Positions 564 through 20,730 of a stretch of 21,769 bases of DNA are shown piece by piece. Each line of letters opens with the position of its first letter. The stretch's first letter is position 1. The translations under genes and the position numbers were made by a program. The DNA is from a virus. The notes beneath the pieces were generated by a model. It saw nothing but the letters and a program-made list of their open reading frames with translations. It ran no database searches and was not told the DNA's origin. Location: IMG/VR virus record IMGVR_UViG_3300022200_001811, positions 1 through 21,769 of that record; one strand, written 5' to 3'.

Positions 564-953
564 CTAACCTGATTTGCCGGAATTGATCACTGGCACAACC
601 CGCCACGCCTCTCGACGATGCGCCTCTTGGCGGGTTTCTTGTTTATACTGATGCACGGCATCATACGTTGCCGCGAATATGTCGGGCTTGCACGGGTAAA
701 ATTCGCCATGAACCCCTTTAATGATCCAATCGCCCAACGTCGCCACATGCTTTGCTCTGCCGTCTGGGCCGTCCTCAAGCGTGGTAACGTTCATGCCTTT
801 GGCTGCCACGATGTCGCAGTATTCGTCCCACTTTTCCAAATCCATGCCGCGCCCTATTTCTTGAGGCCCATGCATAAACTCGTAGGCCTGCTTGATTGTG
901 GCGGCGGTCAACTGCACGGCTTGAATAACAACCGGTTTTTTACGGTATTTCAT
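564..953 (-). CDS. Conserved phage protein of unknown function
   Basis: A 129-residue soluble protein starting MKYRKKPVVIQAVQ and containing the block GDWIIKGVHGEFYPCKPDIF (residues 74-93). This start and this block are recognisable as a widely distributed small phage protein, found in phages of many hosts and generally annotated only as hypothetical. The stretch between them is variable. The last 25 residues are rich in Arg, Glu and Gln. There is no membrane segment or signal peptide. It overlaps the endolysin stop by ATGA, so it is co-expressed with lysis genes, although the family is not confined to lysis cassettes. Recognition is from memory of the family, not from a search. Confidence 0.8.
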   Translation of the reverse strand: MKYRKKPVVIQAVQLTAATIKQAYEFMHGPQEIGRGMDLEKWDEYCDIVAAKGMNVTTLEDGPDGRAKHVATLGDWIIKGVHGEFYPCKPDIFAATYDAVHQYKQETRQEAHRREAWRVVPVINSGKSG

Positions 954-15749: not shown

Positions 15750-17036
15750 TTAACTGTTAAAACGGATCAGCTTCAAAGCTTCAAAGTTAATGATATCTCC
15801 GCCCACGCGTTTTGTGCTATAAAAGCCAACGTAAGGCTTCGCGGTGTAGGGGTCACGCAGCACGCGGATGCCAACCCGATCAACGATCTGGTAAGCCGCC
15901 CGCATATCGCCAACAGCAATCGACAGCGACGATGCGGCGGGGTCTGGCATATCCTCAAACGAGGCGACAGGATAGCCCAACAGCGATGCAGGCTGACCGG
16001 CAGCAATGCCAGGCGACCAGAGGTAAGCGCCGTCGCTGTCCTTGACCTTGCGAACCAATTTAGTCGTTACGCGGTTCATAAACCAAGTCGCGTTGGCACG
16101 GTACGGGGCTTTCAGACCATACAGCGCGTCAATCAGCACGTCACCACCGTTTGGCGCTGCAGCAAAGCCGCCAGAAACGCCAGTTGGCACTTGCTCGATA
16201 GTGCCGGGCAATGTTGTGCCTGCCGTGTAGGTCAAGAAACCGCGCGGCTTATCGACGCCGCTGCCTGTCACGAATGCCGCCGATTCATCGCGGGCAAACT
16301 TCTCGGCAACTTTGTTCGCAAGCCATGCCTCCATATCAATTGCAGCATCGTCCAGCAGCTTTTGCGTGGCCTTTGGGAATGCAAACAATTCATGTGTAGG
16401 AATGCGCCAAGCCTTCAAGGTAGGCGTGCCAGTCTCAGCGCGGGCTTGAGTTTCACCAACCCAGCCGGAAGCAGCCTCGTCCAGATCAAATAAGCCTTCT
16501 AGCGCGTCCGTGCTGATAGTCTGCACCGATGCATAGGCCCGCATTGGCGAGGTTTCAAAAACCTTCGACACCGTGCGGCCCGACATGTCAGGATAAACCA
16601 CATAGCCGCCGTCTGGGTCAGACCCAACCGAAAGCGCCTTGATTTCATCCGCGCCCATGACCTGATCGCCCTTGCGCATGTAGGACAGGAACTGGTTTTT
16701 GTAACCATCAAGCTCTTTCGCGCCGAAGTTGGACGCACGCGAACCGGATTTGCGGGCGATCATATCGGCCCATGCCAATGCCTTTTGGTCCAGATCGACT
16801 TCATTGCCCTTTTCATCGGTGACAATGCGCGATTGACGCTTGGTTGCCAGAACGGCGGCGTCTGCCTTCTTTTGCGCGGCGTCAAGATCGGCTTCGATCT
16901 TGGCCAACTTGGCCTCGGTCACGGGATCAGCCGCGCCCTTGGTTTCGATTTCCTTAAGGCGTGCATCATTTGCGGCCTTAAACTCGGTGAATGCGGTGTT
17001 GATGGTTTCAACCGCTTGCTTGATTTCGTCAGACAT
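15750..17036 (-). CDS. Major capsid protein, HK97 family
   Basis: A 428-residue capsid precursor. Residues 1 to about 75 are a charged coiled coil, the delta or scaffold domain removed by the prohead protease. A linker follows, then the mature shell domain beginning near residues 100-135. Hallmark sequences are ALSVGSDPDGGYVVYPDMSG (134-153), WVGETQARAETGTPTLKAW, AVAEKFARDESAAF-type helix with VTGSGVDKPRGFLTY, and the P-domain segments ATWFMNRVTTKLVRKVKDSD and PVASFEDMPD. The ribosome site AAGGAGG precedes the ATG, which overlaps the protease gene by 8 nt. Length with the delta domain is normal for the family. Confidence 0.95.
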   Translation of the reverse strand: MSDEIKQAVETINTAFTEFKAANDARLKEIETKGAADPVTEAKLAKIEADLDAAQKKADAAVLATKRQSRIVTDEKGNEVDLDQKALAWADMIARKSGSRASNFGAKELDGYKNQFLSYMRKGDQVMGADEIKALSVGSDPDGGYVVYPDMSGRTVSKVFETSPMRAYASVQTISTDALEGLFDLDEAASGWVGETQARAETGTPTLKAWRIPTHELFAFPKATQKLLDDAAIDMEAWLANKVAEKFARDESAAFVTGSGVDKPRGFLTYTAGTTLPGTIEQVPTGVSGGFAAAPNGGDVLIDALYGLKAPYRANATWFMNRVTTKLVRKVKDSDGAYLWSPGIAAGQPASLLGYPVASFEDMPDPAASSLSIAVGDMRAAYQIVDRVGIRVLRDPYTAKPYVGFYSTKRVGGDIINFEALKLIRFNS

Positions 17037-17688
17037 GGAATGCCTCCTTCAATTTGTTCAGTGATTGCAATAGGGCTTTGGCCCGTTCATCGCCTTCATC
17101 AGCACCCACGTCGCGTGTCACCTTTAGGCCTTTGAAGCCATCGGCAAGCAATGCCTTGGCCTCCTTCTGCGAAAGTCCGCATACGTCGCGTAGCGCGGCT
17201 TCCAATTTCCGAATGTCAAACGCGCCGTCATCTGACTTCACGCCTGTAACCTTTGCAGCTTCATTCATCGGGAACGTCACAAGGCTGATTTCGTACAATT
17301 CAACCTCAAGCAACTTCCGAATGCGCCCGCCGCCTTCCTGCACCGCTTCAACCGTGCGATAGCCGATTGAAATACCATCAATGGCACCGGCCCGAAGCAT
17401 TACCATAGCCTCCTCGGCCAGCTTAATGCCCTTCAGCAAACGCCCCTTGAAAAACAAGCCGCGCTCGTCCTCACTCAAGACGTCCAGCACGCCGATCACC
17501 TTGCTTGTATCATGTTGCCAAAGCAACTTGACCTTGCGCCCTGACCCTAGCGACTTGGTAAAAGCCCCACGTTCGACCACGTCAAGCCCTTGGTCAACAA
17601 TGCCAAAAACCGACGCATAGCCCTCGAACTCGCCATCCGCGTCCGGTTCTTTTTTCAACTCGAAAGCGGCCTGCTTGTGTTCGATCAT
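17029..17688 (-). CDS. Prohead protease, HK97 family (S78)
   Basis: Cleaves the delta domain from the capsid protein during maturation. I place the start at ATG 17688 (219 aa): GGGG precedes it, and the promoter-like element at 17710-17727 would make the ATG at 17703 nearly leaderless. Catalytic residues of the herpesvirus-protease-like fold are visible, numbered from this start: His59 in LLWQHD, Ser107 in DGISIGY and Glu133 in LYEISLVTFP. EGYASVFGIVDQGLDVVERG near the N-terminus is typical. The C-terminal 60 residues form a charged extension (SQKEAKALLADGFKGLK). Placed directly before the capsid gene, as in HK97. Confidence 0.93.
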   Translation of the reverse strand: MIEHKQAAFELKKEPDADGEFEGYASVFGIVDQGLDVVERGAFTKSLGSGRKVKLLWQHDTSKVIGVLDVLSEDERGLFFKGRLLKGIKLAEEAMVMLRAGAIDGISIGYRTVEAVQEGGGRIRKLLEVELYEISLVTFPMNEAAKVTGVKSDDGAFDIRKLEAALRDVCGLSQKEAKALLADGFKGLKVTRDVGADEGDERAKALLQSLNKLKEAFHV

Positions 17689-17709
17689 GCTTTTGCCCCG
17701 CATAGGTTT

Positions 17710-17727
17710 GTTACGTTATAACATAAC
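17710..17727 (-). promoter_or_regulatory. Repeated promoter-like element upstream of prohead protease/capsid
   Basis: The minus strand reads GTTATGTTATAACGTAAC, 18 of 18 identical to the copy upstream of the major tail protein. It is a near-perfect dyad with TATAAC in -10 position, 22 bp before the chosen protease start. It lies in the 64-bp gap after the 54-residue ORF and would drive the protease-capsid-connector cassette. No convincing -35 box at standard spacing. Confidence 0.6.
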
Positions 17728-17767
17728 ATAGAGACAATGGCTATACCATCTTGCATCTGCTACTCCC

Positions 17768-17932
17768 TCACAACCCAAGTGACCTAGCCACAATCATTGC
17801 CTCGAATAATTGCCCGATCAATTCACGCTCCGCACCGCCAGCGGAATCGCGCAACTTTGAAATTTCATCCTCTGCATTTTTTAGCAACGGTCTTGTGCGT
17901 GCAATATCTTGGGCTTTATCAAGTAATTCCAT
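17768..17932 (-). CDS. 54-residue ORF directly behind the MuF-metalloprotease gene, possible immunity partner
   Basis: ATG 17932 follows the MuF stop with no gap, and AAGG lies upstream; the frame ends at TGA 17768-17770. The product is small, charged and predicted all-helical (MELLDKAQDIARTRPLLK, then EDEISKLRDS, then ERELIGQLFEAMIVARSLGL), with no signal or membrane segment. No family is recognised. Immunity genes of polymorphic toxins are typically small, immediately downstream and translationally coupled, which fits. A structural or assembly role, or a chaperone for the MuF protein, is equally possible. It is the last gene before a promoter-like element, so it belongs to the portal-MuF cassette. 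Confidence 0.68.
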   Translation of the reverse strand: MELLDKAQDIARTRPLLKNAEDEISKLRDSAGGAERELIGQLFEAMIVARSLGL

Positions 17933-19453
17933 TTATTTCGCCTTTTTGTCCATGCGTTCGAATAGCCGCAACAACGGCGGATATATGCGGAAAAATTGGG
18001 ATTTATTGCCTTGCATGTATAGCGCAAAGCTTTCCGCGACCAATTCTTCCGTTGATGTTTGTGCGTATCGGCTTATGAGCAGCCCCCACTGAGGCGCAAA
18101 TGTGCCATTCGGGAAAATTCCGCTAATCTCCGGCATCACCTTGGAGTGCAGTCGGTGTCCAAGTTCGTGAAACGCTATGTCTTTCGGTGTATTTGGAATG
18201 GCCCACTTGTATTCCGATGGGTCCATTTTTGCAAATATGCTTACAAAATCATCGCCAAAATGCACGCCACGTTCAGCCAATACCTTTGTCGCGGCTTTGT
18301 AATGCGTCCCCTTTGTTGCATGTGAAACCTCAATTCCTGCATCAAGCATATCGTAATTAAACGCCTTTGCTGCGCCAAGGTAATAGTCACGCTTCATATC
18401 AAACGCGGCAGCAGCCGAACTGTTCCAACTATATCGCGGCCCCGCCTTTTTATGGTTTCCGACAAATGCAGCAGGCCCAAGCGCAAATCTCTCCTGTACT
18501 TCCAGCATTGCCGAATGTGTCTCGTTAACCATCTGAACCTTTGCGCCGGGCGGCAAATCGACCCTATCGGCTACGGTACCCGTCATTCTTGCGGTGGCCT
18601 CTTTTATGTTTTTTGACGGCTTAAACTCCTGATATGTAAATTGCGCACCATGAACCGCCTGCGCCTCTATTGGCGATGTTGCCGCCTGAATGCTATCCCT
18701 AACAACCCAGCCCAACGCGCATCGACAGTTTACGACATTCGCCGCGCTGCCAGCAGGATCGCCGGGATACATCATAGCCTCACCGCCTACGTCAAACGCC
18801 TCGTCTTTGCCGACTATCTGCCCATTGGCTAAGGCGTGATCCTCGCGCGTGCGTTCATCCTCGGCGCTGATCCATTCCTTGTCTAACAATAGGCCAGTTT
18901 CATCCGCCGCCGCAAACGCCCCGTAATTCGCCGCGCCGTGCGTTTCGGTTCGTGCAATCAATGCTGATCTGAATGTAGACATAGACGGCACGGCCTCGCG
19001 CACCAGCTTTGCAACACCGAATTGCCCCAGCCCATCCTGATACCCACGGTCAACCGCATTGACGATCTGTTGCCGTGTGGTTTCCGCTACGTTCGTAATG
19101 CGGCGGCGCAATAATTCGCCCGCGATGTAGCCAAGAGCGATACGCGCCATTGTCTCGGCAAATCCCTTGGTTTCGAAAACCTGCCCCGACGATTTGCCTT
19201 GCTGCACAACACGCCCGCCAAATACGGTCATGGTTGCAATCGCCATGGCCTGATACATTGCGGTTAGGCGGTCCACATGGTCGCGTGCTGGTGGAACCTC
19301 GCCCGTATGCTCATAGACCAGCACCATATCAAGCATGGCCCGCGATAACTCCGCCTTGATGCGATTGCGAAACCCAACCTCAAGACGGTCCAACAATATC
19401 ACCTGACGCCGTTGCTCCCTGCGCGGGCTTTGATCAATCAGCCTGCGAACCAT
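17933..19453 (-). CDS. MuF-type head morphogenesis protein fused to a C-terminal HELGH metalloprotease-like domain
   Basis: A 506-residue protein. Residues 1 to about 250 are a minor head protein of the SPP1 gp7 / Mu gpF family: helical N-terminus, IARTETHGAANYGAF (167-181), then KEWISAEDERTREDHALANG (192-211) ending in NCRCALGW (242-249). Residues about 270-506 are extra. This part contains HELGH (429-433) and, about 40 residues later, STEELVAESFALY (467-479), the arrangement of glutamate zincins (HExxH plus a downstream Glu, here Glu474 or Glu470). Phage MuF proteins with C-terminal effector domains are a known class of polymorphic toxins thought to be carried in the virion. The C-terminal half looks more AT-rich than the head genes around it. 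It overlaps the portal by TAATG. The fusion is clear; toxin function is inference. Confidence 0.85.
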   Translation of the reverse strand: MVRRLIDQSPRREQRRQVILLDRLEVGFRNRIKAELSRAMLDMVLVYEHTGEVPPARDHVDRLTAMYQAMAIATMTVFGGRVVQQGKSSGQVFETKGFAETMARIALGYIAGELLRRRITNVAETTRQQIVNAVDRGYQDGLGQFGVAKLVREAVPSMSTFRSALIARTETHGAANYGAFAAADETGLLLDKEWISAEDERTREDHALANGQIVGKDEAFDVGGEAMMYPGDPAGSAANVVNCRCALGWVVRDSIQAATSPIEAQAVHGAQFTYQEFKPSKNIKEATARMTGTVADRVDLPPGAKVQMVNETHSAMLEVQERFALGPAAFVGNHKKAGPRYSWNSSAAAAFDMKRDYYLGAAKAFNYDMLDAGIEVSHATKGTHYKAATKVLAERGVHFGDDFVSIFAKMDPSEYKWAIPNTPKDIAFHELGHRLHSKVMPEISGIFPNGTFAPQWGLLISRYAQTSTEELVAESFALYMQGNKSQFFRIYPPLLRLFERMDKKAK

Positions 19454-20730
19454 TAACGGCCCGTCCCATATATCCAGCTCTTAACATCATCCGGCGTTAA
19501 TTCAGGCGGCACAACAACAGGCGGCGGCGCTGGTAGCGGCTCAGTTGCCATATCAAGGCTGATCTGCGACGAATTGACCAACAGCGCATCGCCCCCATCA
19601 ATCGGCTTATAGCCCTTCAATTCGCGGCGCTCGTTGATTGTTAAATCAGTTGCCTTGTCAGCCATATCCCAAAGCGTCTGCCGCTTTTCAACAATTGCTG
19701 GGATCTGATCCATATCGGGCTTGATTTGCAATTCGCCGCCGGTCAGCCATTCCGACCAATCCGATGCAATCCAATCCAATAGCGGGGATACGGTATCTTC
19801 CCAAAACGCAAGCCGCGCCTCGGCGTAGTTGGAATAGGTGTTATCGCCGGGGATGCCTAGCAATTGAGGCGGCACGCCAAAGCCTAGAGCAATGTCCCGA
19901 GCGGCGGCGTTCTTAGCCTCAATGATGCCCATATCTGTCGGGCTTAGGCCCATGGGCTTCCAATCAAGGCCACCCTCTAGCATCATCGGCCTGCCCGCGT
20001 TGCGTGACCCTGAATATTGCTCATCAATCTGTGCTTTTAGGCGGTTAAACGCCTCATCCGATAGCGTTTCGCCGTTGCCCATGACCATAGCACCGGACGG
20101 CCTGGCACTGTTTTGCAGCAACGCTTGCATCCACTTCATGGTTTCGTTGTGCTGATCGACTGAATAGGCGGTGGCCTCAACCGGGGAAAGCCCATACCAA
20201 TCGTCTAAAGGATTAAACATGCGGATGTGCCGCAAATCGCAATCCTGTGTTGCCTCATCCGCGTCGAATGTGACCTTTCGCCCGCCTACCTCGTATGTGT
20301 ACCCGCGCGGGAACCCATTAGCGCCGGGGATAACCTTCATGCGGTCTGGCCTTAGCTGGTACAATTCGCGAACAGAATTGCCAACCTTCACGCGCTCCTC
20401 GTAGCCATTGCCCGACAGCATCAAATAGCCAACCTTGGCTTGGATATACTGCGCACCGGATTGCCCCGGATTAGGCCGCGCTATCAACCGCAAAATTTCG
20501 TGGTCAACTATTTCCGTCTCGCCGCGCCACAGCGTCCAGCGGGCAGAGGCCACGGCGTCCGCAATGCGATTGACGGCCTGATATGCCACCACGTTGCGCC
20601 TATACGCCTCGTCTGCAAATGCCTTATAATCGCGGCCAGACCAAACCGCCTGCCCCGGCGTCATAATCAAAGCCGCGCCCGTTGCACTGGCCTTTTGTTC
20701 AGATCGTCCAAATACGCGCGGGAATTTCAT
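19453..20730 (-). CDS. Portal protein, HK97 family
   Basis: A 425-residue protein forming the dodecameric ring through which DNA enters and leaves the head. Family signatures: RNVVAYQAVNRIADAVASA (45-63), the GYLMLSGNGYEERV segment, YQLRPDRMKVI, the FNPLDDWYGLSP block, and the strongly diagnostic FGVPPQLLGIPGDNTYSNY followed by EARLAFWEDTVSPLLD. The C-terminus has a Pro-rich stretch (PLPAPPPVVVPPE). Length is typical. It starts after a 86-bp gap carrying a promoter-like element and overlaps the MuF gene. Confidence 0.95.
   Translation of the reverse strand: MKFPRVFGRSEQKASATGAALIMTPGQAVWSGRDYKAFADEAYRRNVVAYQAVNRIADAVASARWTLWRGETEIVDHEILRLIARPNPGQSGAQYIQAKVGYLMLSGNGYEERVKVGNSVRELYQLRPDRMKVIPGANGFPRGYTYEVGGRKVTFDADEATQDCDLRHIRMFNPLDDWYGLSPVEATAYSVDQHNETMKWMQALLQNSARPSGAMVMGNGETLSDEAFNRLKAQIDEQYSGSRNAGRPMMLEGGLDWKPMGLSPTDMGIIEAKNAAARDIALGFGVPPQLLGIPGDNTYSNYAEARLAFWEDTVSPLLDWIASDWSEWLTGGELQIKPDMDQIPAIVEKRQTLWDMADKATDLTINERRELKGYKPIDGGDALLVNSSQISLDMATEPLPAPPPVVVPPELTPDDVKSWIYGTGR

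What the first reader, a model, noticed from the sequence alone, without database searches (positions are those of the whole stretch)
17933..18625. MuF head protein carries a C-terminal HELGH zincin-like domain: candidate virion-delivered effector
The sequence shows a complete MuF domain ending in NCRC, then about 235 extra residues with HELGH and a downstream STEELVAESFALY, which together form a gluzincin-type metal site. MuF proteins fused to toxin domains are an established class of polymorphic toxins in temperate phages; a metalloprotease of this type would be an effector injected with DNA or released to act on competitors or the host. The alternative is a maturation protease acting on virion proteins. 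The C-terminal part looks AT-richer than its neighbours, consistent with module exchange.
Basis: partly seen in the sequence, partly recalled or inferred. Interest (0 to 1): 0.8.

Follow-up and report, generated by a model that had tools for sequence, protein, structure and literature searches.

The report
Phage head protein carrying protease cassette
A structural protein in this virus's head carries an add-on protease that was inserted together with a tiny partner gene, which looks like a weapon delivered into bacteria plus its safety catch; this is a new example of a known type of phage toxin.

Summary
The 506-aa MuF gene (17933-19453, minus strand) has a complete MuF domain, then a ~254-residue extension with HELGHRLH and EELVAESF. 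The extension models as a zincin closest to anthrax lethal factor and PPEP proteases; the metal-site residues are invariant in 29 of 29 aligned sequences. The metal Glu is more likely E470 than E474.

The extension is a cassette, not part of the MuF fold. Of 49 phage loci where MuF was detected next to the prohead protease, 44 have a short MuF (20 of 23 clusters at 95% identity). In relatives the site is empty or holds other cargo. The insert is about 960 bp and AT-rich. The domain also sits on distantly related MuF proteins and, once, alone beside DarA- and InPase-type genes.

Clear homologues follow the domain in L141 and L142; a small ORF lies there, or is fused, in all 28 loci of a larger subfamily, and co-varies with the domain.

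Best reading: a MuF polymorphic-toxin-type protease effector with a cognate inhibitor. Delivery, activity and inhibition are untested. Lysogeny genes were not found in larger carrier contigs, but rarely in related non-carriers either. The phage has its own S78 prohead protease, against a maturation role.

The parts
17933..19453 (-). muf gene, 506 aa: MuF minor head protein with C-terminal zincin-like domain
18695..19453 (-). MuF part (residues 1-253), shared with relatives that stop here
   Evidence: Pfam Phage_Mu_F 2.6e-12; PHROG 2468 head morphogenesis 2.2e-45; relatives end here
17936..18694 (-). C-terminal extension (residues 254-506) with the zincin-like domain (modelled from residue 269)
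   Evidence: AF2 pLDDT 84, pTM 0.85; VIA Z 10.8 lethal factor, 9.1 PPEP-1
18146..18169 (-). HELGHRLH (residues 429-436): predicted zinc ligands H429 and H433, general base E430, and invariant H436
   Evidence: invariant in 29 of 29 sequences and in 9 of 9 of a wider set
18044..18067 (-). Y463 to E470: predicted active-site Tyr and third zinc ligand (E474 lies four residues on)
   Evidence: invariant; PPEP-1 E143/Y178 and PPEP-3 E153/Y189 appear in PDB titles; ligand assignment by recalled spacing
17768..17932 (-). 54-aa ORF starting at the ATG that follows the muf TAA: candidate cognate inhibitor/immunity partner
   Evidence: homologues directly downstream of the domain in L141 and L142; PHROG 18304 E 5.4e-5; same position occupied or fused in the larger subfamily
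17733..18692 (.). inserted cassette (domain plus partner) between blocks of homology with relatives
   Evidence: blastn breakpoints; empty or alternative alleles
17709..17728 (.). near-palindrome TGTTATGTTATAACGTAACA just beyond the right border
   Evidence: present, with at most the first base changed, in 12 of 15 relatives checked, absent in L008, L009 and L024; role unknown
17029..17703 (-). S78 prohead protease, right flank of the cassette
   Evidence: Pfam Peptidase_S78 8.3e-33
19453..20730 (-). portal protein, left flank
   Evidence: Pfam Phage_portal 1.6e-78

Best explanation
The gene encodes a MuF minor head protein whose C-terminus is an effector: a zinc metalloprotease of a lethal-factor/PPEP-like fold. 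MuF places one or a few copies in the phage head; on infection the protease enters the cell with the DNA and cuts a cellular protein, most likely to disarm defence or help take over the cell. The 54-aa product of the next gene binds the protease domain and keeps it silent in the cell where virions are made, as an immunity protein does. Shown here: a fold prediction with a conserved metal site, module insertion and swapping, and linkage and co-variation with a small partner. Inferred: protease activity, virion packaging, injection, target, and inhibition by the partner.
For: Fold and site. Accessory cassette: of 19 non-identical MuF loci, 18 have the MuF end and stop within about ten residues of the NCRC (one after an intein), one is cut by its contig end. 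44 of 49 loci with MuF detected next to the prohead protease are short; as clusters at 95% identity 20 of 23. Borders and empty alleles. Swapping: window vs L141 MuF 24%, domain 54%, partner 58%; L141 vs L104 MuF 91%, domain 30%, partner 22%. Partner: clear homology window-L141 (E 1e-20) and window-L142 (E 7e-9); in the L104-type subfamily 26 of 28 loci have a 50-64-aa ORF overlapping the stop and 2 have it fused, a third fused case is L112; identity of domain and partner correlate, partial r 0.81 given MuF, 0 of 2000 permutations as high. Precedent: MuF toxins Apk2 and Bxa have small neighbours that block the toxin (passages of PMC11699363 and PMC12226406); [quoted passage not shown] The Moritella homologue stands alone between DarA-type and InPase genes.
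Against: No experiment. The ATLF Pfam cut-off is not met (13.7 and 15.5 against 27.4 bits); Foldseek finds no PDB match at E<0.001, and the tool warns that middling Z values can reflect a common arrangement. Three carriers have the small protein fused in cis, odd for a classical immunity protein. Homology between the window's partner and the L104-type partners is not shown: their profiles do not recover each other (pairwise E 0.16 at best). A 4-sequence partner profile also gave one hit away from any domain at E 0.09 (L064). A distant relative (L149) carries an alarmone-synthetase-like region before its zincin, which also suits a processing role. In 31 of 80 prohead-protease loci no MuF was detected, so their MuF ends are unknown.
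Confidence: 0.6

Rival explanations
1. Processing protease: the zincin cuts MuF or another virion protein (autoproteolysis before or after packaging), as proposed for zincin domains of polyvalent proteins such as P1 DdrB.
For: Section 8 of PMC5512222 puts this first for polyvalent zincins. L149 carries a further effector-like region that a protease could release.
Against: In the window protein no further domain to release was detected. The phage has its own S78 prohead protease. Relatives with the same head genes lack the cassette. A dedicated co-varying partner is not needed for a processing role.
Confidence: 0.2
2. The protease is an effector, but the 54-aa partner is a co-folding or activating subunit, or a packaging chaperone, rather than an inhibitor.
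For: Small protein fused in cis in L112, L256 and L257. AF2 models of domain plus partner agree better among themselves (mean pLDDT 77.0-87.1) than domain alone (65.7-84.0).
Against: Non-enzymatic small neighbours of MuF toxins that were tested act as inhibitors, though one neighbour of Bxa did not neutralise it (passages of PMC11699363, PMC12226406). The two AF2 runs used different alignments, pTM fell from 0.85 to 0.79, and no interface scores were available.
Confidence: 0.25
3. Interbacterial-competition toxin of temperate phages: lysogens release virions that poison non-immune neighbours while the lysogen is protected by the partner.
For: Model of PMC5576092 for MuF toxins (passages). The Moritella carrier is a plasmid with two integrase matches.
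Against: In 10 carrier contigs of 25-50 kb and phage HTVC026P no match to tyrosine integrase, serine recombinase, rve or AAA_31 (ParA-type) families; 6 of the 10 contigs have a DNA polymerase A match. This is weak: the contigs may be incomplete, and only 1 of 14 records of the prohead-protease kin had an integrase either.
Confidence: 0.18
4. Inactive or purely structural extension of the head protein.
For: No activity data.
Against: Metal-site residues invariant; absent in most relatives.
Confidence: 0.04

Closest known systems
MuF polymorphic toxins (Apk2, Bxa; Jamet et al. 2017, PMC5576092)
   Same: MuF N-terminus in the head module, swappable C-terminal enzyme, small gene directly downstream
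   Different: Enzyme is a zincin without a matching curated family; the small partner is its own family, fused in cis in three related carriers; temperate lifestyle not shown
M34-type zincins: anthrax lethal factor C-terminal domain and PPEP/Zmp1 proteases
   Same: Predicted fold and HExxH...Y...E layout; VIA Z 10.8 (170 aligned, 3.6 A) and 9.1 (159 aligned, 3.5 A)
   Different: 8-17% identity in the listed rows, below the Pfam ATLF cut-off; an extra invariant His (HExGHxxH); on a phage head protein
Zincin (MPTase) domains of phage polyvalent proteins (Iyer et al. 2017, PMC5512222)
   Same: Zincin on virion-associated proteins; the Moritella homologue sits beside DarA and InPase genes
   Different: Simple MuF-zincin architecture with a dedicated partner gene; whether it falls in one of their 12 clades was not tested

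Membership tests
MuF polymorphic toxins | N-terminal MuF domain in the head/packaging module | tested here: met
MuF polymorphic toxins | C-terminal domain exchangeable between MuF proteins | tested here: met
MuF polymorphic toxins | small candidate immunity gene directly downstream | tested here: met
   only position, homology and co-variation were tested
MuF polymorphic toxins | toxicity of the domain and neutralisation by the neighbour | not testable with these tools
   needs expression tests
[quoted passage not shown]
   no integrase, recombinase, rve or AAA_31 in 10 carrier contigs of 25-50 kb and HTVC026P, but contigs may be fragments and 13 of 14 kin records also lacked an integrase; HTH_3 over cut-off in 2 of 11
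Pfam ATLF (PF07737) | score above the curated cut-off | tested here: not met
   13.7 and 15.5 bits against 27.4
M34-like zincin fold | HExxH helix, Tyr and Glu on the second helix in a lethal-factor/PPEP-like fold | tested here: met
   predicted model only, residue roles by recalled spacing
Prohead maturation proteases | conserved in the phages of the lineage | tested here: not met
   extension absent in 44 of 49 loci with MuF detected beside the S78 protease
Polyvalent-protein MPTase clades | placement in one of the 12 published clades | not tested
   published alignment not available here

The most novel reading that the evidence does not exclude
A family of virion-borne metalloproteases, each with its own small dedicated silencer that is sometimes built into the same polypeptide, used by phages without lysogeny genes to act in the first minutes of infection, probably against host defence, rather than by lysogens to kill competitors.
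Probability: 0.25. Interest if true: 0.7.

Novelty: new member of a known kind. Interest (0 to 1): 0.52.

Why it matters
MuF-linked metallopeptidases were predicted in 2017, but in the passages read here only MuF toxins of other enzyme types (Apk2, Bxa) had been tested. Related phages with an empty site give the borders of a two-gene cassette, so the effector and its likely inhibitor can be tested as a unit. If carriers prove lytic, the published link of MuF toxins with temperate phages would need revision; the cultured Pelagibacter phage HTVC026P, with a more distant copy of the domain, offers a place to look for such a protein in virions.

Tried and rejected
Searches that led nowhere: tblastn of the window's domain against phage records, no match; genome contigs with one protein and with an alignment, none confirmed; domain alone against PDB sequences by phmmer, no meaningful hit; L142 and L144 domains in phage records, none; the 54-aa ORF against phage records gave only hits at E 0.7 or worse, and one of them (Araxxi gp20) lies among unrelated genes; L142's partner, none; L142's domain in viral contigs found only itself. 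PHROG 18304 was found in 1 of 7 other carrier records.

Considered and rejected: conserved structural part of MuF (absent in most relatives); E474 as metal ligand (spacing favours E470, not proven); a first alignment of domain plus partner in which two partner rows were misaligned, replaced by one without them. The Foldseek PDB result is weak and was not used alone. Rows left out of counts: L258, a distant relative, is in neither the 28 nor the 29, though a small ORF follows it too; of the 115 stretches only the 80 listed ones were read for motifs. Where several ORFs overlapped the stop (for example L236, L243, L249, L251, L253, L255) I chose the one fitting the family by eye. Literature searches for MuF with metallopeptidase, MuF with virulent phage, minor capsid protein with metalloprotease domain, and HTVC026P showed no test of a MuF metalloprotease in their listings (open-licence papers only).

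Full report
What is there. The window is a 21,769-base virus record with lysozyme, capsid, S78 prohead protease, MuF, portal and terminase genes on the minus strand. The MuF gene (17933-19453) encodes 506 aa. Pfam finds Phage_Mu_F at 128-247 (E 2.6e-12) and only a sub-threshold ATLF match at 406-484. PHROGs and NCBIfam find head families over the N-terminal half; the last 255 residues searched alone match nothing in either.

The extension is an inserted cassette. A scan with the MuF part gave 21 IMG/VR loci, two of them copies of this lineage. Of the 19 others, 18 contain the MuF C-terminus and stop within about ten residues of the NCRC motif, one of them after an intein; one (L014) is cut by its contig end. 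DNA homology to the window breaks at about 18692 and resumes at about 17733. At that site relatives have almost nothing (L006, L010-L013, L018, L019, L021) or other DNA: a 272-aa protein (L008, L009, L024), capsid-like fragments (L015), a 160-aa protein (L016, L017), or about 290 bases without an ORF of 50 aa (L020) (families). A second scan with the prohead protease gave 283 stretches, of which the best 80 loci were kept. A MuF profile found MuF upstream in 49: 44 short, 4 extended (two copies of the window lineage, L210 and L228), one with an intein (L181). In the other 31 no MuF was detected, in some because the contig starts too close, so nothing is known of their MuF ends. The 49 fall into 23 clusters at 95% identity, 20 of them short. 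L210 carries the same domain family; L228 carries a different HEYGH-containing extension without a Pfam match.

The domain. Relatives were found by a motif pattern (115 stretches, 80 listed and read), by profile scans and in one plasmid. With nine sequences, AlphaFold2 gave mean pLDDT 84.0 and pTM 0.85 (five-model means 65.7-84.0). The VIA second look ranks anthrax lethal factor (Z 10.8, 170 aligned, 3.6 A) and PPEP-1 (Z 9.1, 159 aligned, 3.5 A) highest; the tool puts typical best Z of models without a clear match at 7 to 8, and higher for helical ones, so this is good but not overwhelming. Foldseek alone had no PDB match at E<0.001. Among predicted viral structures it matches phage entries, some labelled 'minor capsid protein' or 'lethal factor'. 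A profile of the domain reaches lethal-factor chains at E 0.0013-0.012. H429, E430, H433, H436, Y463, E470 and E474 are invariant in 29 of 29 sequences and at the same positions in 9 of 9 of a wider set; since HExGH- and EExxAE-type patterns helped to find or trim the sequences, this overstates the evidence somewhat. This is a zincin that resembles M34 enzymes; membership in Pfam ATLF is not met.

Domain swapping. L141 (39.8-kb contig) has a domain 54-56% identical to the window's on a MuF only 24% identical over the aligned part. L104 has a MuF 91-92% identical to L141's but a domain only 30% identical. L141's MuF is below the Pfam cut-off but matches PHROG head morphogenesis at 1.5e-72. In Moritella plasmid pMR24a the domain stands alone (288 aa), directly after a DarA_N/DarA_C gene and two genes before an InPase gene; it and the InPase protein share an N-terminal stretch by eye, which might be a packaging signal (inference).

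The partner gene. Directly after the MuF stop codon lies a 54-aa ORF (17768-17932), within the same insert. Homologues follow the domain in L141 (61%, E 1e-20) and L142 (35%, E 7e-9); the Moritella neighbour matches L142's at E 3e-4. PHROG 18304 (function unknown) matches the window's and L141's (E 5.4e-5 and 1.2e-8). In the L104-type subfamily (28 loci, 22 clusters at 95%), 26 loci have a 50-64-aa ORF starting 26 to 4 bases before the end of the stop, and two (L256, L257; the latter the same contig as L210) have such a sequence fused to the protein's end. L112, from the unlisted part, is a third fused case. L104's partner against L210's tail gives 40% over 40 residues, E 2e-7 for that single comparison, but a two-sequence profile gives only E 0.16 at database scale. 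A profile from 25 separate partners, searched against 36,581 ORFs of 260 loci, gave at E<0.25 only hits next to or inside domain genes; the fused forms L112 and L210/L257, not in the profile, scored E 0.009-0.016, L256 none below 1 (four rows first flagged as not adjacent were re-scored as adjacent). An earlier 4-sequence profile had one hit elsewhere at E 0.09 (L064). The loci were collected for the domain, so the sample is not random. Profiles from one group recover others (L104 group to L244, E 6e-9; L244/L252 to the L104 group, E 4e-10 to 1.5e-5), but the window group and the L104 group do not recover each other, so their common origin is not shown. Over 23 non-redundant members, domain and partner identities correlate at 0.91, and 0.81 with MuF held constant (0 of 2000 permutations as high); partner and MuF with the domain held constant correlate at 0.37. 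Codon positions of the partner in window and L141 are 58, 79 and 34% identical, as expected of a protein under selection. In L146-L148 a different, cysteine-containing small ORF takes the place. The isolate Pelagibacter phage HTVC026P has gp30, after the portal gene, with the domain (sub-threshold ATLF; no Pfam MuF match), overlapped by 60-aa gp31; gp31 was not recovered by the partner profile.

How it probably works. MuF proteins are head components thought to be delivered with DNA (passages of PMC5576092 and PMC5512222). Two MuF toxins with other enzymes, Apk2 and Bxa, are toxic in bacteria and are blocked by small proteins encoded next to them; a further neighbour of Bxa did not neutralise it (passages of PMC11699363 and PMC12226406). 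The simplest reading is a protease effector with a cognate inhibitor. A processing role (section 8 of PMC5512222) remains possible but explains neither the swapping nor the co-varying partner. A folding or activating partner is the main open alternative, because of the cis fusions and because the model of domain plus partner (pLDDT 87.1, five-model means 77.0-87.1, pTM 0.79) was more consistent than that of the domain alone; the alignments differed, pTM was lower, and no interface score was available.

Lifestyle. PMC5576092 reports MuF toxins as restricted to temperate phages, although its test on phage genomes was not significant (p 0.055; passages). Ten carrier contigs of 25-50 kb and HTVC026P gave no match to Phage_integrase (where 1 of 17 records, the Moritella plasmid, matched), Resolvase, rve or AAA_31 (0 of 11 each). 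Six of the ten contigs have a DNA polymerase A match; HTH_3 matched in 3 of 11, 2 over the cut-off. As a control, of 14 records of the prohead-protease kin (one of them a carrier) only 1 had an integrase, so the absence is not special to carriers. DNA polymerase A was absent from the window's two sister contigs and ten kin records (0 of 12). The lifestyle of the window's phage stays open.

Known versus new. Zincin-MuF fusions with downstream small ORFs are known in outline (20% of 191 putative MuF toxins have a metallopeptidase domain; [quoted passage not shown]). New here, as far as these searches show, are this subfamily, its partner with occasional cis fusion, and a cassette whose borders are given by related empty sites.

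Noticed in passing
L023:1785-3410 and L181:1340-3046: Inteins sit inside the NC|RC motif of MuF in two relatives (intein N- and C-terminal models over cut-off in L023; L181 weaker).
   Followed up: partly
L219:3519-4007 and L164:3163-3882: HNH endonuclease-type genes occupy the same MuF/prohead-protease gap in relatives (L219 HNH_3 E 3.1e-17; L164 only by eye, no Pfam match), so the site may be a target of homing elements.
   Followed up: partly
L015:3818-4947: Two partial capsid-like ORFs (Phage_capsid 5e-39 and 5e-11) sit in the same gap.
   Followed up: no
L228:3-1160 and 1157-1357: A different HEYGH-containing MuF extension with an overlapping 66-aa ORF at the same position; no Pfam match.
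   Followed up: no
L149:2271-5474: Head-morphogenesis-type protein with an alarmone-synthetase-like region (SaSAS, E 1.9e-16) before a distant zincin domain.
   Followed up: partly
L258:2180-4400: Distant HEYGH domain followed by a small ORF that resembles the window's partner (profile E 0.096-0.22); may bridge the partner groups.
   Followed up: partly
L140:9746-11600: Moritella plasmid zincin and the neighbouring InPase protein share an N-terminal stretch by eye, perhaps a packaging leader.
   Followed up: no
window 599-635 (+): Borderline Rfam abiF RNA match (37.5 against 37 bits) on the strand opposite a phage ORF; probably chance.
   Followed up: no
window 17709-17728: Near-palindrome between MuF and prohead protease, kept in 12 of 15 relatives checked, lost in those with the 272-aa cargo; possible regulatory site.
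   Followed up: partly
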